A stretch of DNA of 32,833 bases from Arthrobacter crystallopoietes BAB-32 (GTDB lineage: Bacteria > Actinomycetota > Actinomycetes > Actinomycetales > Micrococcaceae): contig NZ_ANPE02000076.1 of assembly GCF_000328305.2 (NCBI RefSeq), forward strand, positions 1-32,833, written 5' to 3'. Below the pieces are notes generated by a model. That model worked only from the letters and a program-made list of their open reading frames with translations, ran no database searches and was not told the origin of the DNA. A program made the position numbers and the translations under genes. Shown here one piece after another: positions 8,395-22,678 of this stretch. The stretch's first letter is position 1, and every line of letters begins with the position of its first letter.

Positions 8395-9900
8395 TTAGTG
8401 CCCCTGGCGTTCGCCGGCTCCCACGGGTTCCGGCCGGAGTGCGCCGAGCGCCGCTTCGAACTCGGCGTCGATCTCGGGCGTGGGCTTATAGGTGAGCAGG
8501 CTGACCACGACCGCGACCAGCACGTTCAGGATGAAGCCGGGAACGATTTCGTACATGGTGTCGGCCAGCGTGGAGTTGCCCCAGGCGAAGACCGTGACGG
8601 CGCCGGCGACCATGCCAGCCAGCGCGCCGGGCATGGTGAGCTTCCGCCAGAAGAGGGACAGGATGATGGTCGGGCCGAAGGAGGCGCCGAACCCGGCCCA
8701 GGCGAACGCGACCAGACCGAGGATGGTGTCGTTGCGGCTCCAGGCCAGCAGGGCGGCGACGACGGAGACGACCAGCACGCCCATCCGGCCGAGCATGACC
8801 TGCGTCTTAGGCGAGGCCTCACGCTTCGCCACGATCTTGAACAGGTCCTCGACCAGCGCCGACGAGCACACGATCAGCTGCGAGGACACGGTGCTCATGA
8901 TGGCGGCGAGGACTGCGGCCAGGACGAGGCCGGCGAGGAACGGGTGGAAGAGGATCTGGGCGAGGTCCAGGAAGACGGACTCCGGGTCGGTCAGGGTGGC
9001 GTCCGGATTCTGCTGGAAGTAGGCGATGCCCACCAGCGCGGTCGCGACCGCGCCGAGCACGGTCATGACCATCCAGCCGATGCCGATCCGGCGGGCGGCC
9101 TTGGCTTCGGCGGGGGAGCGCAGCGCCATGAAGCGGACGATGATGTGCGGCTGGCCGAAGTAGCCCAGGCCCCATGCTGCGGCGGAAATGCCGGCAACCG
9201 CGCCCCCGGTGAAGAGGCTCAGGTGGGTGGGGTCGACTTGCCGGATGGATTCGAAGGTGGCGCCGAGCCCGCCGGTGGCGAAGAGCCCGGCGATGGGAAC
9301 GACCAGCAGCGCGGCGAACATGAGCAGGCCCTGGGCCACGTCGGTGTAGCTGGCGCCGAGGAAGCCGCCGAAGAGCGTGTAGAGCACGGTCACGCCCCCG
9401 ACCAGCAGCATGCCGATGGTGTAGGTCGAGTTGAAGGAGGCCTCGAAGAAGATGCCGCCGGCGACCATGCCGGAGGAGACGTAGAACGTGAAGAAGACCA
9501 GGATGATCAGGCCGGAGACCACCCGCAGGATGTGCGAGTTGTCTTTGAGCCGGTTCTCCAGGAAGCTCGGCACGGTGATGGAGTTGTTCGCGACCTCGGT
9601 GTAGGTGCGCAGCCGCGGGGCGACGAACTTCCAGTTGAGCCACGCACCGATGGTGAGGCCGATGGCGATCCACGCTTCGAAGAGGCCGCCGAGGTAGAGC
9701 GCTCCGGGGAGGCCCATCAGCAGCCAGCCGGACATGTCGGACGCGCCGGCGCTCAGTGCTGCCACGCCCGGTTTGAGGCCGCGGCCGGCGAGCATGTAGT
9801 CGTCAAGGTCGCTGGTCCGCCGGTACGCCCACCAGCCGATCGCGAGCATGCCGGCCATATAGAAGGCCATGGCGATGTACTGGAAAAACTGGTCGTTCAC
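8395..9900 (-). CDS. putP: Sodium/proline symporter PutP (SSS family)
   Basis: The 501-residue protein has about 13 membrane segments and matches E. coli PutP in length and landmarks. SAGASDMSGWLLMGLPGA contains Asp55 and Ser57 at the same positions as the Na+-binding residues of PutP. The family signature region is GGFLGASYTDVAQG. It imports proline with Na+ for nutrition or osmoprotection. The GTG start at 9900 has GGAAGGA 7 nt upstream. It is monocistronic: a hairpin follows it, and the next minus-strand gene upstream ends with its own hairpin once its frameshift is corrected. Confidence 0.92.
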   Translation of the reverse strand: MNDQFFQYIAMAFYMAGMLAIGWWAYRRTSDLDDYMLAGRGLKPGVAALSAGASDMSGWLLMGLPGALYLGGLFEAWIAIGLTIGAWLNWKFVAPRLRTYTEVANNSITVPSFLENRLKDNSHILRVVSGLIILVFFTFYVSSGMVAGGIFFEASFNSTYTIGMLLVGGVTVLYTLFGGFLGASYTDVAQGLLMFAALLVVPIAGLFATGGLGATFESIRQVDPTHLSLFTGGAVAGISAAAWGLGYFGQPHIIVRFMALRSPAEAKAARRIGIGWMVMTVLGAVATALVGIAYFQQNPDATLTDPESVFLDLAQILFHPFLAGLVLAAVLAAIMSTVSSQLIVCSSALVEDLFKIVAKREASPKTQVMLGRMGVLVVSVVAALLAWSRNDTILGLVAFAWAGFGASFGPTIILSLFWRKLTMPGALAGMVAGAVTVFAWGNSTLADTMYEIVPGFILNVLVAVVVSLLTYKPTPEIDAEFEAALGALRPEPVGAGERQGH

Positions 9901-10680: not shown

Positions 10681-10769
10681 CGTAAAGGATACGTCCGGCG
10701 TCGAAGAGAGGAATGCTGGGACAACGCGTCCCGCCGGGCAAGGAACCGACCGCAACCAGCGAGGTATTC

Positions 10770-12458
10770 ATGAGCAACGAACCGTCCGGTGAAAGCGCAC
10801 AATCCAGGCTGGGGGACGCCGTATCAGCCCCTCCCGCCAAGGGCTGGGCGACGGTGGACAAGACAGTTTTCGGGGTCTCCGTAGGCATTATCGTGGTGCT
10901 TTGCCTGCTCGGGGTGTTCGCGACGGAGTGGTTCGAGGCCACAGCTGCTGCGGCTTTGTCCTGGATTACGACGACGTTCGGCTGGCTGTTCGTTCTCGGC
11001 GCCACAGGGTTCGTGGTCTTCTCCCTGGTGCTGGCCTTCGGACGGTACGGCAGCATTCCGCTCTCCAAGGAGGGGGAGGAAGCAGAGTACTCCACGTTGT
11101 CCTGGATCGCGATGATGTTCAGTGCCGGCATGGGGATCGGGCTGATGTTCTTCGGCGTGTACGAGCCGGTGACGCACCTGGCCTCGCCGCCGCCGTTCGC
11201 CGAAGTCGACGCCGGCAGCGAGGCCGCTGCCCAGACCGCCATGGCCTACACCTTCTTCCACTGGGGCCTGCACCCCTGGGCGATCTACGCCGTCGTGGGC
11301 CTGGCGCTGGCGTACTCCACCTACCGGATGGGCCGCGGCAACCTGATGAGCGCACCGTTCCACTCCCTGTTCGGCCGGGAACGGATCGAGGACAAGGGCT
11401 GGGGCAAGCCGATCGACATCCTGGCGATCATCTGCACCAAATTCGGTTCCGCGACGTCGATGGGCCTTGGTGCCTTGCAGATCGCGGCCGGCCTGGCGCT
11501 GCTGCGGACGGGACAGTTCGAGGACGACCCCGGCGCGGCGATGCCGATCCTCATCATCTGCGTGCTGACCGTCGGCGTGATCATTTCCGCGGCCAGCGGC
11601 GTGTCCCGCGGCATCAAATGGCTCAGCAACACCAACATGGTGCTGGCCTTCGTGCTGCTGGTCTTCGTGTTTGTCGTCGGCCCAACGGTGTTCATCCTGG
11701 ACCTGCTGCCGTCCTCGATCGGCGCCTACTTCTCCAGCTTCGTGGACATGAGCTTCAACTCCGGCGTCTTCGGCGGGCATGATTGGCTGGCCAGCTGGAC
11801 CATTTTCTACTGGGCGTGGTGGATCTCCTGGACGCCGTTCGTCGGCACCTTCATCGCGAAGATCTCCCGCGGCCGGACCATCCGCGAATTCGTGCTCGGC
11901 GTGATGCTGGTTCCTACCGCCGTGAGCGTCGTGTGGTTCACCATCTTCGGCGGTGCCGGCATCAACCTGCAGCTCGGCGGCGTGGACATCGCCGGCACCG
12001 GCAGCGAGGCCGCAGGCTTCTTCGCGGCGCTGCAGCAGTACCCGTTCTTCTTCGGGGCGGCCCTGGTGGTCATGGTGCTGACCGCGGTGTTCTTCGTCAG
12101 CGGCGCGGATGCCGGCTCGCTGGTGCTGGGCACGCTCACCTCCCGCGGCGCCAAGGACCCGTGGATTCCGCTGGTCATCATGTGGGCCATCCTGACCGGA
12201 GCCGTGGCCGCGATGCTGCTGTTCGTCGGCGGCCTCGGCGCGCTGCAGACCTTTACCATCCTGGCCGCCAGTCCGTTCGTGCTCATCATCATCGGGCTCT
12301 GCGTCGCGCTCTATGTCGACCTGCGGCGCGACCCGCTCCGGCAGCGGCGCGCCGGCCCCGTCCGCGGCGCGGTGACGGTCCCCAGCAACGTTCCCTTCGC
12401 CGAAACGGGGCAGATTCCCATCACGGAGGAGCCGCCCGCGGGACGGGACAAGCCCTAG
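10770..12458 (+). CDS. BCCT-family transporter (glycine betaine/carnitine/choline type)
   Basis: The 562-residue protein has 12 predicted membrane segments. It carries BCCT landmarks: SWIAMMFSAGMGIGLMFFG, FFHWGLHPWAIY, and the Trp-rich signature FYWAWWISWTPFVGTFIAKISRG. Charged cytoplasmic N- and C-terminal extensions are present, as in osmoregulated BetP-like carriers. It likely imports betaine-type compatible solutes with Na+ or H+. ATG 10770 is preferred over ATG 10713, which has a purine-rich stretch touching it and too little spacing; GAGGT lies just before 10770. It is divergent from the adenosyltransferase gene. With PutP nearby, an osmoprotectant uptake role is plausible. The exact solute is not determinable. 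Confidence 0.9.
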   Translation: MSNEPSGESAQSRLGDAVSAPPAKGWATVDKTVFGVSVGIIVVLCLLGVFATEWFEATAAAALSWITTTFGWLFVLGATGFVVFSLVLAFGRYGSIPLSKEGEEAEYSTLSWIAMMFSAGMGIGLMFFGVYEPVTHLASPPPFAEVDAGSEAAAQTAMAYTFFHWGLHPWAIYAVVGLALAYSTYRMGRGNLMSAPFHSLFGRERIEDKGWGKPIDILAIICTKFGSATSMGLGALQIAAGLALLRTGQFEDDPGAAMPILIICVLTVGVIISAASGVSRGIKWLSNTNMVLAFVLLVFVFVVGPTVFILDLLPSSIGAYFSSFVDMSFNSGVFGGHDWLASWTIFYWAWWISWTPFVGTFIAKISRGRTIREFVLGVMLVPTAVSVVWFTIFGGAGINLQLGGVDIAGTGSEAAGFFAALQQYPFFFGAALVVMVLTAVFFVSGADAGSLVLGTLTSRGAKDPWIPLVIMWAILTGAVAAMLLFVGGLGALQTFTILAASPFVLIIIGLCVALYVDLRRDPLRQRRAGPVRGAVTVPSNVPFAETGQIPITEEPPAGRDKP

Positions 12459-12464
12459 CCGTCG

Positions 12465-12575
12465 CAGCAGCGGGCCAGCGCCGGGCGCCGGACTACGCCG
12501 TGTCGGCGCAGGGCATCCCGTGGCGTCGTGCCCGCTGCTGACGCAGTCGCTCCTGCCCCGCAGATCCAGCGGGGC
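12465..12575. terminator. Inverted repeats between convergent BCCT and jetD genes
   Basis: GCCCCGC and GCGGGGC (12555-12575, 7-nt loop) form a compact hairpin 17 nt beyond the jetD stop. An 11-bp pair, CAGCAGCGGGC (12465-12475) and GCCCGCTGCTG (12530-12540), brackets further GC-rich sequence after the BCCT stop. Together they probably end both transcripts. Confidence 0.5.
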
Positions 12576-12592
12576 GTTCAGGCGGGGCTGGC

Positions 12593-13897
12593 TTACCTGC
12601 GGGCAGAGGCCAGCCGCCCCAGCGCCCAGTCCCACGGGATCTGTTCCTGTTCCAGCCGCAGGGCCGGTCCGTGCTCATCGTTGACGAGCGCGGTATACAG
12701 CTCCGCCTCGTCCGCTGTCAGGCGGGTGAGCCGGGCGCTGGAAGGTTTGGCCTCCCGTCCCCAAAACTGCCGGTGGGCGAGGAAAGTCCCGGTATCCATC
12801 ATGACGCTTCGCACATGCGGGTGACCGGACCGGAGCTGGTCCAGGATCTGGAAACCGTGAGTGTCGATGTCGCCCCAGTAGATGGTCTCGCACCGCTTCA
12901 GCCAGGCCGCGTGGCGCAGCGCAGAGAATCCGTAGCCGGCACCAAAAAGGGCCATTGTCCCGGGCAGCTCCGGCAGGGCCAGGAAGTTGACCAGGTTCTC
13001 TGTGACGATGATTCTCTGCACGGGCAGCTCGAGGCTGGCGAAGGCTTCGGCCGTGACCGACAGATCCCTGGCAGCACCCAACAGCGGGATGGACGGATCA
13101 AGCACCCTGAAGCGGACCAGCTCCGGTGGGCTCAGGAAGCCGTGACGCGCGGCGAAGCCGGTGCCCGGCCCGCTGACAGGGCCGGCTGCCGGCGGCGCCC
13201 CTGGTTCCATCAATGCGTCAGGCTCCCCGGCCGCCGTGGCGGTTCCCGCGGCAGGAGGCGGGGGAACGGACGACGTGCCGGCAGCATCCGAACGGAGGAG
13301 GATGGCCATTTCGTCGATGGTCCGGCGGTGGGACGCCACGAACTTCGTGTGGACGTTGGGCAAGCTGAGCTGGCGCACGTAGATGCCAGGCGCCGGATGG
13401 TCCCGGAGCCACGCCGCCACGGCCGCGGCGGTGAGGGCGGCCTCATCCAGTTCCAGAAGGGCCAGCGGCCGCTTCAGGGCCCAATGTCGCAGGGTCGGGT
13501 CGAGCTGTTCCAGCCGTGCCGCCAGTTCGAGGAAGCGCCGGGCCTTCCGCTGGTGCCCGAGGAACGCGATCTCGTCGTCTGCCGCGGCGAACAGCGCGCC
13601 GGCAGGGACTTTGTTGGCCCCGATCGTCGTGCGGCCGATGCTGACTGATTCCAAGGTAAAGTCCGTAGCCCCGACGTGCAGTTCCGCGGCCCAGTCCCGT
13701 GCAGCGCCGTAGTTGTCGCGCAATTGGGCTGCGGTGGGGTGCTTCAACGGACGACGGCGGGGATAGGCGCCCGTAGGCGCCAGCAGTTCGCGCAGCAGGT
13801 CGCCTTTGTCCCAGGCTCGTTCGGACTGCTGGCGAAGCGCAGACAGCGTGGTCCAGCCGCTGCTTTGAGCAGCGGCCTTTCCGCCGCTAGCCGGCAC
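12593..13897 (-). CDS. jetD: Wadjet component JetD (DUF3322 + DUF2220, Toprim-like nuclease)
   Basis: The 434-residue protein has an N-terminal DUF3322-like half and a C-terminal Toprim-like DUF2220 half. Catalytic-type motifs visible are TENLVNF (Glu300), GAGYGF (319-324), YWGDIDTHGF (340-349, with Asp343, Asp345 and His347), MDTGTFLAH and LRLEQEQI. JetD is the endonuclease of Wadjet and cuts closed circular DNA trapped by the JetABC motor. A Pro/Ala/Gly-rich linker at about 204-248 separates the halves and looks longer than usual. GTG 13897 overlaps the end of jetC by 11 nt and has GAGGAA upstream. It is the last gene of the operon. Confidence 0.92.
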   Translation of the reverse strand: MPASGGKAAAQSSGWTTLSALRQQSERAWDKGDLLRELLAPTGAYPRRRPLKHPTAAQLRDNYGAARDWAAELHVGATDFTLESVSIGRTTIGANKVPAGALFAAADDEIAFLGHQRKARRFLELAARLEQLDPTLRHWALKRPLALLELDEAALTAAAVAAWLRDHPAPGIYVRQLSLPNVHTKFVASHRRTIDEMAILLRSDAAGTSSVPPPPAAGTATAAGEPDALMEPGAPPAAGPVSGPGTGFAARHGFLSPPELVRFRVLDPSIPLLGAARDLSVTAEAFASLELPVQRIIVTENLVNFLALPELPGTMALFGAGYGFSALRHAAWLKRCETIYWGDIDTHGFQILDQLRSGHPHVRSVMMDTGTFLAHRQFWGREAKPSSARLTRLTADEAELYTALVNDEHGPALRLEQEQIPWDWALGRLASARR

Positions 13898-16800
13898 GCC
13901 GATCGCGTTCCTCGCGGTATTCCTGGATGGTCATGTTGCGCAGCTGGGAATCTTCGCCGCTGGTGTTCGCGACGAAGCCCACATTGGCCACATACGGCTC
14001 GATCACGTGGATCTTCTGCAGGGGCGTGACGATAAGCAGCTGCAGCTTCATCCGTTTGAACAGTTCCAGGCCGTAGCGTGCCGACTCGTCCGATCCCCGG
14101 CCGAAGGCTTCATCGATGACCACGAAGCGGAAGCTCCGTCCGGCGCCGGTCCGGGAACCGTGTCCTGGCACTCGGCCCAGGCCGAACTGGAAGGCCAACG
14201 CGGCGGCCAGGATAGTGTAGGCGAGCTTTTCCTTCTGGCCGCCGGACTTCCCGCCGGAATCGGTGAAGTGCTCGTGTTCCTCACCGGTTTCGGTCCACTT
14301 TTCCGAGGCGGAGAAGGTGAACCAGTTGCGGACATCCGTGACCTTGGCGGTCCAGCGCTCGTCCAGGCTGGTCAGGCCTTCGCGGCCGCGGAAGCGGCTG
14401 ACCAGCTTCTCCACTTGGAGGAACTTCTGCTCCGAATACTGGTCCTCGTCGCCCAAGGTCCCTTCGGAACAGGCCCGGAGGTCGGCCCCGAACTCCCGCA
14501 CGTCCATGTCGGTGGTGTTCTGGTGCTCAAGCTGGATGTGCCGGCCGGGGTTGTACTCGATGCCGGCCAGTGACTGGTTGATCTCCCCAATCCGCTTGAC
14601 GATATCCTGCCGGCGGGACTCGAGGAAGGCGTTGAAGGCCACGACCTCGTGGATCGTGTTCTGGTTCAGCGAGTCCTTGAAATGCGCTTCGAAGCGCGGC
14701 AGGTCGTTGTCCACCAGCTGGTCCAGCAGCCGGTTGTACTCGCCGGCAGCGTCCAGGGCAGCGTCGATCTCGGTGGTTTCCTCCGGGTACTTGTTCCGGA
14801 ACTCCGCCATGAGCCGGACCGTTGATTCGGCCGCCCGGGCAAGCTGTTTTGCCAACGCGTCGATGGCGGAACTGAGGTCGCTGCGCACAGCGGCCTCTGT
14901 GCGGTCGGTGTTCTTGTAGGTCAGTTCCGCTTCGCCCAGTGCACGCAAGGCGAGGTCTTGCAGCTCTCCGAGCAAACCGCCGTCGTTAGTCAGCGGAGTC
15001 TCCACCAGGATGGTCCGGCACTCGGCAATGGCCTCCCGGATCTTGTCCAGATCCGACTTATTGCGTCCGATCCGCTCGTACATGGTCCGGGCCTTGGCAT
15101 TTGCCCGGTCCAGGTGCTGCCGGGTTTCCGCTTCCCGTGCGGTGAGCTGCTGCAGCACGTTGCTGGCGGCCTCCAGGGCCGCCTTCTCGGTCTTGAGCTC
15201 CTCGATCCGCCGCGAAGTCAATTGCCAGGCGATCGCCCCGAAATCCTGCACGCCGCGCACGGTCCCCAGATGCTGCCATTGCCGGCCGAGCTGCCCCAGG
15301 GCGGCATCCAGCGTGGCGATCCGGTTTTCTGCGCTGCGGAGCTGGCCCTGGGCCTCTTCCAGTTCGGCGTGGAACCGGCTGATTTTGGCATGGTTGTCCC
15401 AGCCAAGCACGTAGTGGCGCCGGTCCGACAGCGCCTGGCGGTCATCCTTCTCGTGCCGTCCGCGCCCGCCCTTGAGTTGCCCGTTCAGCGTCACCGCCTT
15501 GGGATAGCGGCGGAAGTCCTCCAGCGAATCGCAGCAGACATGGTCGAACCGGGTTGCCAGTTCCTCCAGCAGGAAATTGCGGAATTCGGTAGCCGGTTTG
15601 AGGACGATCTTGGCCGCGAGTGTCCCGGGCTCCGCCGTCCGATGTGCCCCGGCCGGACCGACCTTCAGGTACACCAGCCGGTTGCCCAGGTGAGTCCTGT
15701 CGACCCAACCGGTGACCGCGGCGTAATGCGCGGCGGGAACCAGCAGGGAGAGCGCGAAGCCGCGCAGCGTCCGTTCCGCCGCTCCTTCCCAGGCAGCCTC
15801 TTCATCCCGCACTTTGAGCAGCTCACCGGCGAACGGCAGCTCCGCTTCCGGGATGCCGGTTCCTTCACACAGACGACGGCGGAGCTCCAGTTGGGTGCGC
15901 GGCATGAGGTTTTGCCGGGACTGCAGGCTCTTGAGCTCGGCGCGCAGCTCATCCGCACGGGCGGAGGCCTCGTTCCGCTGTTGCGAGGCGGCGGTTCTGC
16001 TGTCCTGGAGACCCGTGTTCTCCGCGCGGAGGCTGTCCTCGACCTCCGCCAGCCGGGCCGCGTTGCCGTCGAACAGTACCTGGTCTTCGGGCGTGCGCAG
16101 GCCGAGTGCCTCGGCAGCCGTCGTGTAGCTGTCGAAGCGTGACCGCTGGGCCCGGGCCTCCTCGGCCAGCCGCGAGATGTCCGCGTCCAGGGCAGCCAGC
16201 CGTCCGCCGCCGTTGGTGCGGATGTCCTCCTGGATGCCGGAGAGCTCGTGGGCCAACCGGGTCAGCTCTGCCTGGAGTTTTTCCTGTTCATCCTCCAGCC
16301 GGCTGCCGGTGCGTTCGAGTTCCTGCTCGTGCGCCAGGCTCAGCTCGAGCTTCCGGGCCGTGAACCACGGATGCAGCTGGTCCCGCTGGAGCCTGCCGCG
16401 CTGCTCGCGCTGGGCCAGGTCCTCATGCCTGGCGGCGCCGTCCCGGATGGGCGTCAGCCGCTGGATCTGGTCCTTGGCCCGCAGGACCGCGTCATGGGCC
16501 TTCTTCAGATCATCGAAGTGGCCGATCAGGTTCTTGATCCGGGACGCAATGTCATCCTGTTCCAGCATGTTGGTCCGCACGAAGTGCGTGATGTTCTCCA
16601 CCTGTTTCATGGAAACGGTCCGGTGGAAGAGTTCCATCGCCTGGCTCCCGGAGATGCCGAACTGCCGGCGGAACGCGGCCGCGTAGGGCTCGAAGGAGTC
16701 ATGCACGGTTACTCCCGCGGCGCGCAGCTTCTTCTTGAGCTTCGCCGGATCCTTGCCAAAATCGGCGAAGTCGCGGGCAATCGCCTGCTCCGTCTCGGCA

Positions 16801-17282
16801 AGCGAGTAGAAGCGGTTGGGCTGTCCTGCTTCCTGCACAGCCCAGAGCGTGATTGCCAGGGAGACGGTCTTGTCCAGGCCGGCATGGTGGAAAACGCCCA
16901 GCACCACCGAGTAGGAACCCGGTCCACGGAGCGCCACGGGCTTGGAATTGTCCCCGGCTGTGGTCCTGGTGCTCTTGTGGTAGCCCCGCACATAGGACAT
17001 CAGGCTGCGCTCTTTCTTCTGCGCGCCGGCTGCCTTGTTGTACTCGATCCGGTTGGCTGGCAGCAGCAGCGTGGTGATGGCATCCACCACTGTCGATTTG
17101 CCGGAGCCGATGTCACCGGTCAAAAGGCTGTTTTCGCCGTCGAGCCGGAAGGTCCGGACGCCTTGGTGGAAGGTGCCCCAGTTCAGCAGCTCCAAACGGC
17201 GAAGGCGGAACCCCGGTGCCGGACCGGCGCCGTCGTCGATGTCTTCCAGCGAGAACAGGCTGTCCTGCAGATCGATCGTCAC
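13887..17282 (-). CDS. jetC: Wadjet component JetC (SMC/MukB-like ATPase)
   Basis: The 1131-residue SMC-like ATPase has Walker A GDIGSGKST at 56-64, preceded by ELLNWGTFHQG. Long heptad-rich coiled-coil arms flank a hinge-like middle (roughly 260-480 and 620-920). The C-terminal head carries signature KSGGQKEKLAY (about 1012) and Walker B FVVIDEAF (about 1053-1060). JetC dimers, with JetA and JetB, form a loop-extruding MukBEF-like motor that recognises small circular DNA. The start is GTG 17282: its GTGA overlaps the jetB stop, and GAAGGGGG is 7 nt upstream. A longer frame to 17390 lies inside jetB. All key motifs are intact. Confidence 0.94.
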   Translation of the reverse strand: MTIDLQDSLFSLEDIDDGAGPAPGFRLRRLELLNWGTFHQGVRTFRLDGENSLLTGDIGSGKSTVVDAITTLLLPANRIEYNKAAGAQKKERSLMSYVRGYHKSTRTTAGDNSKPVALRGPGSYSVVLGVFHHAGLDKTVSLAITLWAVQEAGQPNRFYSLAETEQAIARDFADFGKDPAKLKKKLRAAGVTVHDSFEPYAAAFRRQFGISGSQAMELFHRTVSMKQVENITHFVRTNMLEQDDIASRIKNLIGHFDDLKKAHDAVLRAKDQIQRLTPIRDGAARHEDLAQREQRGRLQRDQLHPWFTARKLELSLAHEQELERTGSRLEDEQEKLQAELTRLAHELSGIQEDIRTNGGGRLAALDADISRLAEEARAQRSRFDSYTTAAEALGLRTPEDQVLFDGNAARLAEVEDSLRAENTGLQDSRTAASQQRNEASARADELRAELKSLQSRQNLMPRTQLELRRRLCEGTGIPEAELPFAGELLKVRDEEAAWEGAAERTLRGFALSLLVPAAHYAAVTGWVDRTHLGNRLVYLKVGPAGAHRTAEPGTLAAKIVLKPATEFRNFLLEELATRFDHVCCDSLEDFRRYPKAVTLNGQLKGGRGRHEKDDRQALSDRRHYVLGWDNHAKISRFHAELEEAQGQLRSAENRIATLDAALGQLGRQWQHLGTVRGVQDFGAIAWQLTSRRIEELKTEKAALEAASNVLQQLTAREAETRQHLDRANAKARTMYERIGRNKSDLDKIREAIAECRTILVETPLTNDGGLLGELQDLALRALGEAELTYKNTDRTEAAVRSDLSSAIDALAKQLARAAESTVRLMAEFRNKYPEETTEIDAALDAAGEYNRLLDQLVDNDLPRFEAHFKDSLNQNTIHEVVAFNAFLESRRQDIVKRIGEINQSLAGIEYNPGRHIQLEHQNTTDMDVREFGADLRACSEGTLGDEDQYSEQKFLQVEKLVSRFRGREGLTSLDERWTAKVTDVRNWFTFSASEKWTETGEEHEHFTDSGGKSGGQKEKLAYTILAAALAFQFGLGRVPGHGSRTGAGRSFRFVVIDEAFGRGSDESARYGLELFKRMKLQLLIVTPLQKIHVIEPYVANVGFVANTSGEDSQLRNMTIQEYREERDRRAG

Positions 17283-17923
17283 TTCGAGGCCCCCTTCGGG
17301 CGGTTGGTCTCCGGAGCCTGCCCGCCGCCCGATCCGCCGTCCAGCGAGGCTCGGTAGTCCGCCAGCCGGGCGTCGAACTCTTCGAGCCACTGCGCGTCAA
17401 CGAAAGCCTTCAGGATGCGGGCAACTTCGTAGGTCCCCTGCTGGCCGCGGAGTTTTCGCAGGAACCCCAATTCGACGACCTTCTTGATGTTGGCTCCGAG
17501 CTGGTCCAAGATGCGGGCCTCGTTGCTGGAGTCGGCCAGGAACACGGAAACCATGTCCGCGATGTCCTGTTCGGTCATGACCAGCCGGGATTCGCCGGCG
17601 CGCTGGTCGAACTCGGCCAGGCGTGCGCGGAGCAGCGCGAGCAGCAGGCTCACATTGAACGTCAGCTGCCGGCGCGGCACCAGGCGCGGGAGCGTGCCGT
17701 CGGCGTCGGGGCGGGACTTCAGGAAAGCGAAGCCTTCACTTTCGTCCAGGAAAAGCTCCAGGCCAAGGACAGCCACGTAGTCGCGCACATGCGAGGCGAG
17801 CGGCAGCAGGGACTGCCAGGCCTTCTCGTCGGCTTCGGCATAGAGTACGCCGCGGAACAGCCGGGTCACGACGGCGGGAAGTTCGTCCGGGTGGGCCGGT
17901 GCGGAGTTGGGTTCTGCGGTCAT
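17279..17923 (-). CDS. jetB: Wadjet component JetB (DUF4194, MukE-like)
   Basis: The 214-residue protein has winged-helix character and matches the DUF4194/JetB pattern. It contains AVVTRLFRGVLY near the start, a central LVPRRQLTFNVSLLLALLRARL, and MTEQDIADMVSVF. A C-terminal winged helix follows (LDQLGANIKKVVELGFLRKL). JetB plays the MukE role, bridging the kleisin JetA to the JetC heads. ATG 17923 overlaps the jetA stop as ATGA, and its own stop overlaps jetC as GTGA, so translation is coupled throughout. The Gly-rich C-terminal tail (DGGSGGGQ) is probably disordered. Confidence 0.92.
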   Translation of the reverse strand: MTAEPNSAPAHPDELPAVVTRLFRGVLYAEADEKAWQSLLPLASHVRDYVAVLGLELFLDESEGFAFLKSRPDADGTLPRLVPRRQLTFNVSLLLALLRARLAEFDQRAGESRLVMTEQDIADMVSVFLADSSNEARILDQLGANIKKVVELGFLRKLRGQQGTYEVARILKAFVDAQWLEEFDARLADYRASLDGGSGGGQAPETNRPKGASK

Positions 17924-19380
17924 GAGGGCCTCGCAAAGATGATCTGTTCGACGGTGGCTTCGCGGATGCTGCCGTCCGGCAGGGTCCAAACCAGCTGCTG
18001 GGTCACATCCGGACTGATGCTCGCCCACGGTGAATCCGAGGCCAGCTGGAAGTAGGTGACGATCTCCGCCAGGCCTTGACTGAGCGGGAAGGCATCGGTG
18101 ATATCCGCCAGGGTGGCCTGGTCAGCGCCGTCAAGCACGGCGTCAATGTTGTCCTGCAGGCGTGCTTTGTCCACGTGGAACTGCTCGAACAGGGCGGCTG
18201 GGTCCACGTCCCCGTCCTCGGCCAGGAAGACTTCGTCGTCCACCGCGACCCGGCGTGCCGGTTCATAGAGCGGGCGTTCGAACGGCAGCACCACGTCCAC
18301 TGCCTGTGCGGAAACCTCCATGAACGTTGCGGGCGGGCGGTCGTTGCGCACCGCCAAAGCATTTCCTTCGATGGACCGGATCAACTGCATGATCCGTTTG
18401 TTCTCCAGGAACACCTTGTCATCAAGCAGCCGGCGCATCTGCTGGGACAGCTGCCGGACCGTTGACTGGGTCTGTTCCACCGCTGGCAGCCAGTCCTGGT
18501 GCAGCTCGCCGATGGCATGAATGTTGTCCAAACCGGCCAAAGCCTCGATTTGGGTGGCCCGGTCCAGCAGGTCCTGCAGCTCGGAACGCAGTTGCGGGGA
18601 CATGAGGTAGTCCCAGAATCCTTGGAATGTTCGGCCTTGGATGGAACCGGAAATGTCCTGCTGGTTGGCAAAAATGGACTCGAGGAGTTCGCCCTGGCTG
18701 CCGTCCCAGGTAGCGATCTGCTCGCGGACCTGCCGGTCCAGCTGCCTGAAGTTCTGTTCCACCTCGCGGAAGTCGGACAACAGGTCCTTGGCCAGGGCGG
18801 TCAGCTGCTGGAAATGGTCCAGCGCCTCCGGCCCGCTCATCACCTGGATCCTGCCGTCCCGGATCTGCTGCATCTGGGCGTCGATGGCATCGCGCTGCTT
18901 CTGCAATTCGGCGAGCCTGACTTCCGGGTCCGTTTCGGACTCCTGGACGAGGGTCTTGAGCAGCTGGAAGATGCTGGTCAGGCGGGATTGGGTGGCCACG
19001 AAGTCCCGTCCGCGCAGGTTCTCCACCCACCGGACCACGTCCTCTGCCGTGGCGGTGAGGTCATACAGCGGTTCATCCTCGCCCGGGGCATAGTACTTGC
19101 GCAGCCAGGCTTTTTCCGGGGCTGCCCAATCATCGAGATACTCTGCCGCCGGGCGGGGAAACCTGTCCTCGCCCAGCCCATCCCGGAGGCCGAAGAGCAC
19201 ATCGTCCAATGTGTCGATCAGAGCCTGCCTGCCAATGTTGCGCTGGTTGGGGCCGGTGAAGGCAGCCATGAAAAATGCGATGGCCAACGGCCCGTTCTGG
19301 GCACGCAGCAAGGACCAGCCTGCATGGTTCTCGCGCAGAGAATTAACGGCGTAGAAGTCCATTGGTCCCCAAGTAGTCAC
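17920..19380 (-). CDS. jetA: Wadjet component JetA (DUF3375, MukF-like kleisin)
   Basis: The 486-residue protein matches DUF3375/JetA. The N-terminus has FYAVNSLRENHAGWSLLRAQNGPLA as a winged-helix start. A heptad-rich central region follows (about 150-330, with LAELQKQRDAIDAQMQQI). The acidic C-terminal domain is expected to contact the JetC head. JetA is the kleisin that closes the SMC ring. GTG 19380 with GGAG 7 nt upstream is chosen; ATG 19362 is an alternative. It is the first Wadjet gene, 72 bp after lysR on the same strand. No strong promoter was seen in that gap, so read-through from lysR is possible. Confidence 0.92.
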   Translation of the reverse strand: MTTWGPMDFYAVNSLRENHAGWSLLRAQNGPLAIAFFMAAFTGPNQRNIGRQALIDTLDDVLFGLRDGLGEDRFPRPAAEYLDDWAAPEKAWLRKYYAPGEDEPLYDLTATAEDVVRWVENLRGRDFVATQSRLTSIFQLLKTLVQESETDPEVRLAELQKQRDAIDAQMQQIRDGRIQVMSGPEALDHFQQLTALAKDLLSDFREVEQNFRQLDRQVREQIATWDGSQGELLESIFANQQDISGSIQGRTFQGFWDYLMSPQLRSELQDLLDRATQIEALAGLDNIHAIGELHQDWLPAVEQTQSTVRQLSQQMRRLLDDKVFLENKRIMQLIRSIEGNALAVRNDRPPATFMEVSAQAVDVVLPFERPLYEPARRVAVDDEVFLAEDGDVDPAALFEQFHVDKARLQDNIDAVLDGADQATLADITDAFPLSQGLAEIVTYFQLASDSPWASISPDVTQQLVWTLPDGSIREATVEQIIFARPS

Positions 19381-19452
19381 AGTTCAGCTCCGCCACCCAT
19401 GGTAGAGCCTGGCGCCGACAATTCAGTTTCGGGGCCGCTTCGGTCCAGGGGT

Positions 19453-20376
19453 TCAGCCGCTGCGGCCTTGGCCGAGCAGTTCCTGTTCGAATCCGGCGGT
19501 TTGCTCCCGCAGCGCTTTTGCGACGGCGGCGACGGCGGGCTGGCGCAGGGATTCCTGGCGCAGCACCATCCAGTACGGCAGCAGCTCGGCGAAGTCTTCG
19601 GGCAGCAGTCTGACCAGGTCGGCGTGCCGATCGGCCATGAAGCAAGGCAGGAAGCCGATGCCGGCGCCGGCGCGGGTGGCTTCGACGTGCACGAACACGT
19701 TGGTGGAGCTGAGCGAGTCCAGCATCGAGGGGACCAGCCGGCGGGGCGCATCGAGGTCGTCGACCTGGAGCATCGAATCGACGAAGTAGACCAGGCCGTG
19801 CCGGGTCAGCTCGCGGGTGTCGGCCGGGGTGCCGTGCTCCTCGAGATAGCTGCGCGAGGCATACATCCCGAGCATGTAGTGGCCCAGCAGGATGGCTTCG
19901 GCCCGGTGCACCTGCGGCTCGCCAACCACCACTTCGATGTCCAGCCCGGAGCGGTGCTGCAGCGCCCGCCGGGTGACGTTGACGATTTCCACGCTCAGGT
20001 TGGGATGCCGCCGCCGCAGCTTGGCCACCGCAGGAGCAATGATGTAGCCGCTGAAGCCGTCAGTGGAGGAAATGCGTACGACGCCGGAAATCTGGTCCGC
20101 TTCTGCCTCGCCTTCGTGGATCCGGGCGACGGCGGTCTCGATATGTTCCGCCGCACCGGCGGCACGGCGGCCCAGCTCGGTCAGTTCCCAGCCGCCCACG
20201 GTCTTGGCCAGGACCCGGCCGCCCAGCGCCTTCTCGAGGGCCGCAATCCGGCGCGAAACAGTGGTGTGGTTCAGGCCCAAGCCCTCCGCCGCCGTCGTAA
20301 ACCTCCCGCTGCGCGCCACCGCGAGCAGGATCAGCAGGTCGTCGGGATTGGGGGCGGTTCCGGACAGCATCGTCAT
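19453..20376 (-). CDS. LysR-family transcriptional regulator
   Basis: An N-terminal winged helix-turn-helix is clear: LLILLAVARSGRFTTAAEGLGL followed by NHTTVSRRIAALEKALGG. A LysR substrate domain follows, with GVVRISSTDGFSGYI and late FVHVEATRAGAGIGFLPCF. The start is uncertain: ATG 20376 leaves a normal short N-terminus, while ATG 20415 adds 13 residues; neither has a good ribosome site. It is divergent from the MHS symporter/SDR operon and so probably controls it, responding to a substrate of that pathway. The jet operon lies immediately downstream on the same strand. Confidence 0.87.
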   Translation of the reverse strand: MTMLSGTAPNPDDLLILLAVARSGRFTTAAEGLGLNHTTVSRRIAALEKALGGRVLAKTVGGWELTELGRRAAGAAEHIETAVARIHEGEAEADQISGVVRISSTDGFSGYIIAPAVAKLRRRHPNLSVEIVNVTRRALQHRSGLDIEVVVGEPQVHRAEAILLGHYMLGMYASRSYLEEHGTPADTRELTRHGLVYFVDSMLQVDDLDAPRRLVPSMLDSLSSTNVFVHVEATRAGAGIGFLPCFMADRHADLVRLLPEDFAELLPYWMVLRQESLRQPAVAAVAKALREQTAGFEQELLGQGRSG

Positions 20377-20394
20377 ATCTGCAATTCTGCACTC

Positions 20395-20521
20395 TGTCTC
20401 TGCGGAACTGGTCATTGATGCACATCGGCGCGTATGGCGATACTCGAGGGAACCTGCCTGTGGTGCGCGCCACAGGAGAAGAGGCTGCAGCCAGCAGACA
20501 GAGCTGCATGCCGCAGAGACA
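20395..20521. promoter_or_regulatory. Divergent lysR / symporter control region with split 11-bp inverted repeat
   Basis: TGTCTCTGCGG (20395-20405) and its exact complement CCGCAGAGACA (20511-20521) are 105 bp apart. One flanks the lysR start and the other the symporter ribosome site. They may be paired operator half-regions used through DNA looping. LysR binding is inference. Confidence 0.4.
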
Positions 20522-20534
20522 AAGGAGTGCTCCG

Positions 20535-21905
20535 ATGAGCGTCAACAAACCGGCTGCCCCGGCGAAGGAGCAGGGCGGCCTGAAGAAGATCGTGGCGGCC
20601 TCGATGGTCGGCACCGTGGTGGAGTGGTACGAGTTCTTTCTCTACGCCACCGCCGCGTCGCTGGTGTTCGGCCAGTTCTTCTTCCCGAATACCGGCACTG
20701 AACTCGACGGCATCATCGCCGCGTTCCTGACCTACGCCGTCGGCTTCGTCGCCCGGCCGCTGGGCGGCATCGTGTTCGGCCAGATCGGCGACAAGCTCGG
20801 CCGTAAGCACACGCTGCAGGTCACCATCATCCTGGTCGGCGTGGCCACGTTCCTGATGGGCTGCCTGCCCGGCTTCAACTCGATCGGCTACTGGGCGCCG
20901 GCACTGCTGGTGATCCTGCGGTTTGTCCAGGGCTTCGCCGTCGGCGGCGAATGGGGCGGCGCGGTGCTGCTCGTGGCCGAGCACAGCCCGAACAAGCAGC
21001 GTGCATTCTGGTCCAGCTGGCCGCAGGCGGCCGTGCCGGTGGGCAACCTGCTGGCCACGCTGGTGCTGCTGAGCATGTCCTGGATCCTGCCGTCCGACCA
21101 GTTCCTCAGCTGGGGCTGGCGCGTGGCGTTCTGGCTCTCCGCCGTGATCGTGCTGGTGGGCTACTACATCCGCACGCATGTCAGCGAGGCGCCGATCTTC
21201 CTCGAAGCGCGCGAGAAGGTGGAGCAGGAGCAGGCCGCCAGCTACGGCGTGCTGGAGGTTGTGAAGAAGTACCCGAAGGGCGTGCTCAAGGCGATGGGCC
21301 TGCGTTTTGCGGAGAACATCATCTACTACATCATCGTCAGCTTCACCATTGTCTACTTGAAGACGGTCCACGAGTACGACACGAGCCAGCTGCTGCTGGC
21401 CCTGCTGGTGGCGCACGTGGTGCACTTCCTGGTCATTCCGCAGGTGGGCCGGCTGGCCGATGCCTTCGGCCGCAAGCCGGTCTACCTGGCCGGCGCGGTG
21501 CTCTCCGCCAGCTGGGCGTTCTTCGCCTTCCCGATGTTCGATACGCTCAACGACTTCGTCATCATCCTGGCCGTGACCATCGGCCTGTGTGTCCACGCCC
21601 TGATGTACGCGGGCCAGCCGGCGATCATGGCCGAGATGTTCCCCACCCGGATGCGCTACTCCGGCGTCTCGCTCGGCTACCAGGTCACCTCGATCCTGGC
21701 CGGGTCCATGGCTCCGATCATCGCGACAGCCCTGCTGCAGGAAACCGGCAGCTGGGTTCCGGTCGCGGTCTATGTCCTGGTGGCCTGCGCCATCACCGCC
21801 GCCACCGTGCTGACGCTGCGGGAGACCAAGGGCTTCTCGCTCCATGACGTCGACGCCGAGGATGCGCGCAAGCACGGCCTCGAGGCACCGCGGGTGGCCC
21901 GGTGA
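20535..21905 (+). CDS. MFS metabolite:H+ symporter (MHS family)
   Basis: The 456-residue carrier has the MHS signatures: VGTVVEWYEFFLYATAA at the start, GFVARPLGGIVFGQIGDKLGRK (MFS motif A), and RFVQGFAVGGEWGG in segment 4. MHS proteins bring in organic acids such as shikimate, ketoglutarate or hydroxy acids with protons. ATG 20535 has AAGGAG 7 nt upstream; a frame open to 20415 lacks one. The stop overlaps the next start as GTGA. Pairing with a 3-hydroxybutyrate-dehydrogenase-like enzyme suggests uptake of 3-hydroxybutyrate or a similar acid, which is an inference. Confidence 0.88.
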   Translation: MSVNKPAAPAKEQGGLKKIVAASMVGTVVEWYEFFLYATAASLVFGQFFFPNTGTELDGIIAAFLTYAVGFVARPLGGIVFGQIGDKLGRKHTLQVTIILVGVATFLMGCLPGFNSIGYWAPALLVILRFVQGFAVGGEWGGAVLLVAEHSPNKQRAFWSSWPQAAVPVGNLLATLVLLSMSWILPSDQFLSWGWRVAFWLSAVIVLVGYYIRTHVSEAPIFLEAREKVEQEQAASYGVLEVVKKYPKGVLKAMGLRFAENIIYYIIVSFTIVYLKTVHEYDTSQLLLALLVAHVVHFLVIPQVGRLADAFGRKPVYLAGAVLSASWAFFAFPMFDTLNDFVIILAVTIGLCVHALMYAGQPAIMAEMFPTRMRYSGVSLGYQVTSILAGSMAPIIATALLQETGSWVPVAVYVLVACAITAATVLTLRETKGFSLHDVDAEDARKHGLEAPRVAR

Positions 21906-22678
21906 GTGCCGTAGCGCCGCAGACGCTGAAGGGGCGCCGTGCGCTTATCACGGGCGGAGCGGGCGGGATCGGCCTGGCCGCCGGCCGCTCCTTCGCCGCG
22001 CGGGGAGCGCACGTGGTGGTGGCGGACTTGGACCGTGATGGCGCCGAGGCGGCGGCCGCCGAGCTGGGCGGCTCCGCCTGGGTGGTGGACCTGCTGGACC
22101 CGGAAGCCGTGACGGATGAGCGGCTGGCCGAGGCGCTGGACGGCGTGGACATCCTGGTCAACAACGCAGGCATCCAGCGGGTCAGTGCCATCGAGGAGTT
22201 CGACCCGCAGGACTTCCGCCGGATCATCACGCTCATGCTGGAGGTCCCCTTCCTGCTGGTCCGCGCCGCCCTGCCGAAGATGTATGCCAACGGCTTCGGC
22301 CGGATCATCAACATCTCCTCCGTGCACGGGCTGCGGGCGTCTGCGTTCAAAAGCGCTTACGTCACCGCCAAGCACGGGCTCGAGGGCCTGTCGAAGGTGA
22401 CCGCGCTCGAGGGCGGGCCGCACGGAGTCACCAGCAACTGCGTCAATCCCGGCTATGTCCGGACGCCGCTGGTGGAGAAGCAGATTGCGGACCAGGCCCG
22501 GGTGCACGGGATCGACGAATCCGAGGTGCTGGCCAAGATCATGCTGACCGAGAGCGCCATCAAGCGGCTGGTCGAGCCGGAGGAAGTCGCCTCGCTGATC
22601 GCTTGGCTGGCCTCCGACGACGCGGCCATGGTCACCGGCGCGAGCTACACCATGGACGGCGGCTGGTCCGCCCGGTAG
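21902..22678 (+). CDS. Short-chain dehydrogenase, 3-hydroxybutyrate dehydrogenase-like
   Basis: The 258-residue classical SDR has TGGAGGIG (17-24) for NAD(H), NNAG (87-90), catalytic Ser139/140, Tyr153 and Lys157 (YVTAK). The C-terminal region NPGYVRTPLVEKQI, then a helix with HGI and KRLVEPEEVA, and final MDGGW closely follow bacterial D-3-hydroxybutyrate dehydrogenases. These oxidise 3-hydroxybutyrate to acetoacetate. The GTG start overlaps the symporter stop by 4 nt, so the two proteins are translationally coupled. Related hydroxy acids remain possible substrates. Confidence 0.82.
   Translation: MSAVAPQTLKGRRALITGGAGGIGLAAGRSFAARGAHVVVADLDRDGAEAAAAELGGSAWVVDLLDPEAVTDERLAEALDGVDILVNNAGIQRVSAIEEFDPQDFRRIITLMLEVPFLLVRAALPKMYANGFGRIINISSVHGLRASAFKSAYVTAKHGLEGLSKVTALEGGPHGVTSNCVNPGYVRTPLVEKQIADQARVHGIDESEVLAKIMLTESAIKRLVEPEEVASLIAWLASDDAAMVTGASYTMDGGWSAR

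What the first reader, a model, noticed from the sequence alone, without database searches (positions are those of the whole stretch)
12593..19380. Complete Wadjet (JetABCD) defence operon
All four genes are present in canonical order with ATGA, GTGA and 11-nt overlaps. ATPase motifs in JetC and Toprim-type motifs in JetD are intact. Wadjet restricts small circular plasmids and would limit transformation of this strain. There are no mobile-element genes nearby, so it appears to sit stably between core metabolic genes.
Basis: partly seen in the sequence, partly recalled or inferred. Interest (0 to 1): 0.6.

Follow-up and report, generated by a model that had tools for sequence, protein, structure and literature searches.

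The report
Ordinary type I Wadjet anti-plasmid operon
This is a complete four-gene bacterial defence system of a well-known kind (Wadjet) that most likely finds and cuts small circular plasmids; it looks intact, but it is ordinary for this group of bacteria, and in some close relatives it is missing or sits somewhere else.

Summary
Window 12593-19380, minus strand, carries jetA, jetB, jetC and jetD in that order, with ATGA, GTGA and 11-nt overlaps. Every protein's best PADLOC match is a type I Wadjet model. JetC keeps its ATPase motifs; JetD keeps acidic Toprim residues (E300, D343, D345), the first two aligned with residues whose mutation impairs C. glutamicum MksG. The JetD model's best fold matches are MksG and P. 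aeruginosa JetD.

'Sits stably between core metabolic genes' is not supported. The two nearest relatives held have the flanking genes (LysR, BCCT) side by side without jet. In the sister clade the operon lies beside another gene (SSF) in two species and is deleted there in two more, which keep jetD 3' remnants. No mobile genes or convincing flanking repeats were found here.

Function is inferred from studied homologues; nothing was measured. The nearest JetC relatives are in Arthrobacter (79%). Wadjet is reported in 42% of actinobacterial genomes (PMC10482375), and a type I system in Paenarthrobacter (PMC11719660), so this is a new member of a known kind, of low interest. The only mildly unusual part is a long, variable, probably disordered JetD linker, which relatives share.

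The parts
17920..19380 (-). jetA: kleisin-like subunit, DUF3375, 486 aa (start GTG 19380, or possibly ATG at 19362)
   Evidence: PADLOC JetA1 PDLC00457 1.3e-195; PF11855 2.2e-131; JetA 8q72_E 5.8e-20
17279..17923 (-). jetB: KITE/MukE-like subunit, DUF4194, 214 aa
   Evidence: PADLOC JetB1 PDLC00474 9.4e-91; PF13835 5.8e-42 and MksE PF21980 1.4e-17; JetB 8as8_C (same sequence in 8q72) 4.2e-05
13887..17282 (-). jetC: SMC/MukB-like ATPase, 1131 aa
   Evidence: PADLOC JetC1 PDLC00512, 1436.7 bits; AAA_29 and SbcC_Walker_B; JetC 8dk2_C 2e-58 over residues 25-1125
17091..17117 (-). JetC Walker A GDIGSGKST (aa 56-64)
   Evidence: motif located; motif name recalled
14226..14258 (-). JetC ABC signature region SGGKSGGQKEK (aa 1009-1019)
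   Evidence: motif located; motif name recalled
14091..14126 (-). JetC Walker B FVVIDEAFGRGS (aa 1053-1064)
   Evidence: motif located; inside the PF13558 match
12593..13897 (-). jetD: nuclease subunit, N-terminal DUF3322 (CAP-like) and C-terminal Toprim, 434 aa
   Evidence: PADLOC JetD1 PDLC00530 1.6e-134; PF11795 and PF09983; best fold matches 8b7f MksG and 7til JetD
12998..13000 (-). JetD E300, aligned with E. coli JetD residue 248 (solved as E248A) and, by counting, C. glutamicum MksG E236
   Evidence: invariant in 23 of 23 aligned
12863..12871 (-). JetD D343-I344-D345; D343 aligned, by counting, with MksG D279
   Evidence: D343 and D345 invariant in 23 of 23 aligned
13157..13279 (-). JetD inter-domain linker (aa 207-247), Pro/Ala/Gly-rich, predicted disordered, variable in length
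   Evidence: pLDDT below 50; length variation

Best explanation
A complete, probably functional type I Wadjet (JetABCD, also called MksBEFG) anti-plasmid operon in an Arthrobacter-like actinobacterium. JetC, JetA and JetB form an SMC motor that extrudes DNA; on a small circular plasmid the two motor units of the dimer collide once the whole circle is extruded; this switches on the JetD Toprim nuclease, which cuts the plasmid. Shown here: the genes, order, overlaps, domains and conserved active-site residues. Inferred from studied homologues: the extrusion and collision mechanism, and plasmid restriction in this organism. The operon belongs to a lineage shared within the genus that occupies two different sites there and has been deleted at least once.
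For: PADLOC best hits are type I models for all four proteins. Pfam domains match each role. PDB sequence relatives are the Wadjet subunits: JetC 8dk2/8as8, JetA 8q72 and others, JetB, JetD 8b7f/7til/8q72. E300/D343/D345 are invariant in 23 of 23 aligned; E300 and D343 align with residues whose alanine mutants are drastically impaired in MksG. The JetD model matches 8b7f and 7til best. The order A-B-C-D is present in 22 of 24 relative loci examined; the other two, divergent, showed A, C and D with no jetB detected. Type I mechanism: passages of PMC10586767 and PMC10123090. Nearest JetC relatives are in Arthrobacter.
Against: No activity or expression data. No sigma-70-like promoter consensus was found in 12300-20500 (weak test in a 67% GC genome), and there are only 72 nt between the LysR stop and jetA. 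The JetB N-terminus did not align with solved JetB, and the literal IFDR motif reported at the JetB N-terminus is absent. JetD is less conserved than the rest (63% to G003, against 79-87% for JetA-C).
Confidence: 0.94

Rival explanations
1. The genes mainly serve chromosome organisation, as a MukBEF/MksBEF-like condensin, and plasmid cutting is minor.
For: JetA/B/C resemble MukF/E/B (PMC10123090 passages) and JetB also matches MksE.
Against: A fourth gene with intact Toprim residues overlaps jetC by 11 nt. No intact close copy was found in 7 of the 10 genus genomes, all about 99% complete; two of these seven carry a divergent set instead, so dispensability rests mainly on the other five.
Confidence: 0.04
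2. The operon is a silent or decaying copy that looks intact but is not expressed.
For: No promoter-like consensus upstream of jetA. Nucleotide homology to the sister-clade operon stops near the jetA start and the jetD end, so upstream sequence is not shared. Related copies are deleted in G001 and G002.
Against: Four full-length frames with no internal stop and conserved motifs. JetA, JetB and JetC divergence from G003 is in the range of neighbouring genes, which argues for maintained selection.
Confidence: 0.1
3. On origin (compatible with the best explanation): the operon was newly inserted at the LysR|BCCT junction of this lineage from a congener, rather than inherited in the clade and lost in G005 and G009.
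For: The junction lacks jet in both nearest relatives. JetABC and rpoB distances agree only loosely across 23 genomes (Spearman 0.28, 253 pairs), and some jet copies are closer than their hosts, for example G159 and G064 (tree distance about 0.15 in rpoB, 0.05 in JetABC), so transfer probably happens.
Against: JetABC groups with the congeners G003 and G007 (support 0.987) at a divergence like that of neighbouring genes. Loss is documented in the sister clade: two species with deletions; their end points differ but one lies inside the other, so this may be one loss later extended. No mobile genes or convincing flanking repeats were found.
Confidence: 0.45

Closest known systems
Corynebacterium glutamicum MksBEFG (type I Wadjet), MksG structure 8b7f
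   Same: Gene order mksFEBG = kleisin-KITE-SMC-nuclease (PMC10123090 passages); E236/D279 match E300/D343 and Y258 matches Y322, by counting along; best sequence and fold match for JetD
   Different: JetD here has about 41 low-confidence residues between its two domains
E. coli JetABCD (plasmid-borne, 8q72; 8as8 carries the same JetC and JetB sequences)
   Same: All four subunits align by sequence; residue 248 corresponds to E300
   Different: Distant in sequence; the JetB N-terminus does not align
Pseudomonas aeruginosa JetABCD (7til JetD; 8dk1-8dk3 JetABC, organism of these recalled)
   Same: JetC aligned over residues 25-1125, JetD over both domains
   Different: Distant in sequence. PMC10123090 (passage) says PA14 MksB seems to lack Walker A, yet the solved 8dk2 JetC chain shows a GSGKT stretch opposite ours, so I claim no difference there
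   Same: Nearest JetC relatives found, 79% identity; same gene order
   Different: Different site, beside SSF; shorter JetD linker (47 against 72 residues over the same span)
Paenarthrobacter lasiusi S21 type I Wadjet (PMC11719660, Table 6 row seen in passages)
   Same: Type I JetA1-JetD1 set found with PADLOC

Membership tests
Wadjet (JetABCD) type I | Four contiguous genes jetA-jetB-jetC-jetD on one strand | tested here: met
   same order in 22 of 24 relative loci examined
Wadjet (JetABCD) type I | JetA DUF3375, JetB DUF4194/MukE-like | tested here: met
   PF11855 2.2e-131, PF13835 5.8e-42
Wadjet (JetABCD) type I | JetC SMC-like ATPase with Walker A, signature and Walker B | tested here: met
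Wadjet (JetABCD) type I | JetD with DUF3322 and Toprim domain and conserved acidic metal-binding residues | tested here: met
Wadjet (JetABCD) type I | Type I rather than II or III | tested here: met
   best PADLOC model of every protein is a type I model; the only other-type Jet model listed is JetC2 at 1.3e-04
Wadjet (JetABCD) type I | IFDR motif at the JetB N-terminus (contact with JetD reported by cross-linking, PMC10586767 passage; not strictly defining) | tested here: inconclusive
   literal IFDR absent; an LFRG stretch lies at aa 22-25; N-terminus not aligned with solved JetB
Wadjet (JetABCD) type I | ATP-dependent cleavage of circular DNA and reduced plasmid transformation | not testable with these tools
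   needs experiment

The most novel reading that the evidence does not exclude
In this branch of type I Wadjet, JetD carries a long, length-variable, probably disordered tether between its CAP-like and Toprim domains, which might tune how readily the nuclease opens and so which plasmids are cut; and within this genus the operon changes site and disappears around one small metabolic neighbourhood without a recognisable mobile element.
Probability: 0.12. Interest if true: 0.35.

Novelty: new member of a known kind. Interest (0 to 1): 0.13.

Why it matters
Mostly practical: small circular plasmids may be hard to establish in this strain, and deleting jet could help its genetics. The genus offers a natural comparison set: intact, deleted and absent jet loci in close relatives. 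The finding itself changes nothing about what Wadjet is.

Tried and rejected
NCBIfam gave no family above its cut-off for the four proteins. Promoter and terminator consensus scans gave nothing above shuffled expectation (0 and 3 found, means 0.5 and 5.5). Repeats at the operon edges that could mark an insertion: the listing shows 20 of 49 direct families and 25 of 54 inverted pairs; one direct pair straddles the operon (12495-12518 and 19532-19555, 24 nt, 75% identical), which I judge a chance match. tRNA as an insertion target: none in the window. The idea that the SSF-jet-ABC transporter block of G003 is shared: the best match to one ABC permease of that block in G000, G005 and G009 is only 27-32% identical (BPD_transp_1). 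Searches gave rpoB trees with wrongly oriented sequences; they are discarded and only one search is used (one search also supplied JetD coordinates, which are unaffected). One search for published losses found no paper (Wadjet, deletion, loss, Micrococcaceae together); it is narrow and covers an open-access library only. VIA-align matches to topoisomerase VI, Spo11 and primases reflect the shared Toprim fold only.

Full report
What is there. The window (66.9% GC) carries on the minus strand jetA 17920-19380, jetB 17279-17923, jetC 13887-17282 and jetD 12593-13897. jetA and jetB share ATGA, jetB and jetC share GTGA, and jetC and jetD overlap by 11 nt. Start codons are not proven: jetA could begin at ATG 19362 (15 of 22 close homologous loci align from residue 7, the other 7 from 2, 5 or 6), and an upstream in-frame GTG would lengthen jetC to 1167 aa.

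What it is. PADLOC gives type I Wadjet models as best match for all four proteins: JetA1 1.3e-195 (residues 7-485 of 486), JetB1 9.4e-91 (9-196 of 214), JetC1 1436.7 bits (21-1129 of 1131), JetD1 1.6e-134 (13-432 of 434). Pfam gives DUF3375; DUF4194 with MksE; AAA_29 with SbcC_Walker_B; and DUF3322 with JetD_C. NCBIfam has no model above its cut-off for them. In the Protein Data Bank the significant sequence relatives are solved Wadjet or MksG subunits.

Which organism. No call names the genome. Of the 53 loci, 44 are from Arthrobacter, Pseudarthrobacter, Sinomonas, Specibacter or Paenarthrobacter; 9 are from elsewhere at 28-47% identity. So an Arthrobacter-like actinobacterium is inferred.

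Active sites. JetC has GDIGSGKST (aa 56-64), SGGKSGGQKEK (1009-1019) and FVVIDEAFGRGS (1053-1064). In the alignment, JetD E300 lies opposite residue 248 of E. coli JetD (the chain solved as E248A). Counting along the MksG row of that alignment, E300 lies opposite E236 and D343 opposite D279; passages of PMC10123090 say that alanine mutants of these two have drastically impaired nuclease activity. Y322 lies opposite MksG Y258, which that paper discusses as a likely catalytic residue. E300, D343, D345 and Y322 are invariant in 23 of 23 proteins aligned. AlphaFold2 with that alignment gives mean pLDDT 81, pTM 0.58. Foldseek's best hits are 8b7f (MksG) and 7til (JetD) at 9.6e-21 and 4.7e-16, and VIA-align gives Z 23.9 and 20.9 with rmsd 16-18 A, which I read as different domain placement.

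JetD linker. Residues 207-247 have pLDDT below 50. Between reference residues 190 and 262 the 23 proteins of this branch have 36 to 85 residues, and two divergent JetDs have 27. It is a variable tether; I have no evidence for a function.

Mechanism. From passages of PMC10586767: type I JetABC is an SMC complex proposed to extrude DNA; on small circles the two motors meet and may activate JetD, while linear DNA and circles above about 100 kb escape. The anatomy here fits; the activity in this organism is inferred.

Surroundings. Downstream of jetD lies a convergent BCCT transporter gene (10713-12458, +). Upstream lies a LysR regulator (19453-20415, -), divergent from an MFS transporter and an SDR gene (20415-22678, +). 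The rest holds SSF and MFS transporters, a cobalamin adenosyltransferase, a Rieske oxygenase and reductase, an SMR efflux protein, LysE, AsnC, a luciferase-like monooxygenase and ABC transporter genes. None of the 26 non-jet ORFs scanned matched a mobile-element family; 5 of the 26 had no Pfam match, and some of these may be spurious frames. The ORFs scanned were my choice from 147 listed.

Distribution. For the genus 10 genomes are held. JetD_C occurs in 6 of 10, but only 3 of 10 (G000, G003, G007) have an intact operon close to this one; G002 has a remnant, and G004 and G009 have divergent sets. G005 and G009, the closest by rpoB (94.5% and 94.8%), have LysR and BCCT adjacent, with no jet between them. 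In G003 and G007 the operon lies beside the SSF gene; in G003 two ABC transporter permease genes follow on its other side. In G002 about 6.5 kb is missing there, from within jetD to just upstream of jetA, leaving about 75 codons of jetD with stops; in G001 a larger deletion leaves about the last 60 nt of jetD. The G002 gap lies inside the G001 gap, so these may be two losses or one loss later extended. In the family, 97 of 395 genomes (a sample of a larger group) have a JetD match, divergent copies and fragments included. Published frequency: 42% of Actinobacteria against 7% of others (PMC10482375, passages).

Origin. Protein identity to G003 is 86.7, 82.8, 78.5 and 63.4% for JetA-D, against 84.6% SSF, 81.8% LysR, 85.4% MFS, 84.6% SDR, 77.1% MFS3 and 82% BCCT. 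JetD is the outlier. The JetABC tree puts G000 with G003 and G007 (0.987); rpoB puts G000 with G005 and G009 (0.989) and that trio next to the G003 clade only weakly (0.734). Both inheritance with loss and local relocation, and recent gain from a congener, fit; I lean slightly to the former. Across the 23 genomes jet and rpoB distances correlate weakly (Spearman 0.28 over 253 pairs), so transfer between species probably occurs. The 20 loci from other genera, chosen from the best plus two lower ones, show none of the 13 window neighbour proteins tried (over 50 aa and 35% identity) within the 14-20 kb fetched.

Verdict. Observation confirmed; identity as type I Wadjet well supported; 'stable' placement not supported; function not measured. 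Ordinary for this group.

Noticed in passing
L061 6467-9633 and L062 15707-17970 against window 12458-19453: The LysR|BCCT junction without jet in the two nearest relatives; intergenic gaps of roughly 50 bp (G005) and 460 bp (G009).
   Followed up: yes
L068 6882-7106 (G002) and L070 15593-15876 (G001): Deletions of the jet operon in two species of the sister clade, leaving jetD 3' remnants; different end points, one gap inside the other.
   Followed up: yes
L075 3314-9913 (G009) and L076 3105-9563 (G004): A divergent second Wadjet-like set (JetA about 25%, JetC 29-32%, JetD 27-30% identical); jetB was not detected by tblastn.
   Followed up: no
L083 18543-18944 (G164): An extra partial JetD C-terminal piece (aa 296-429) about 6 kb downstream of an intact operon.
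   Followed up: no
window 9897-9900 against L061 10292-11292: CobA and SSF genes overlap by 4 nt in the window, but about 1 kb separates the end of the CobA match (aa 257 of 301) from SSF in G009.
   Followed up: no
L137 and L142 (Arthrobacter sp. ISL-72, contig NZ_JAGGPP010000013.1): Two JetC copies (72% and 70% identical to ours) about 20 kb apart on one contig.
   Followed up: no
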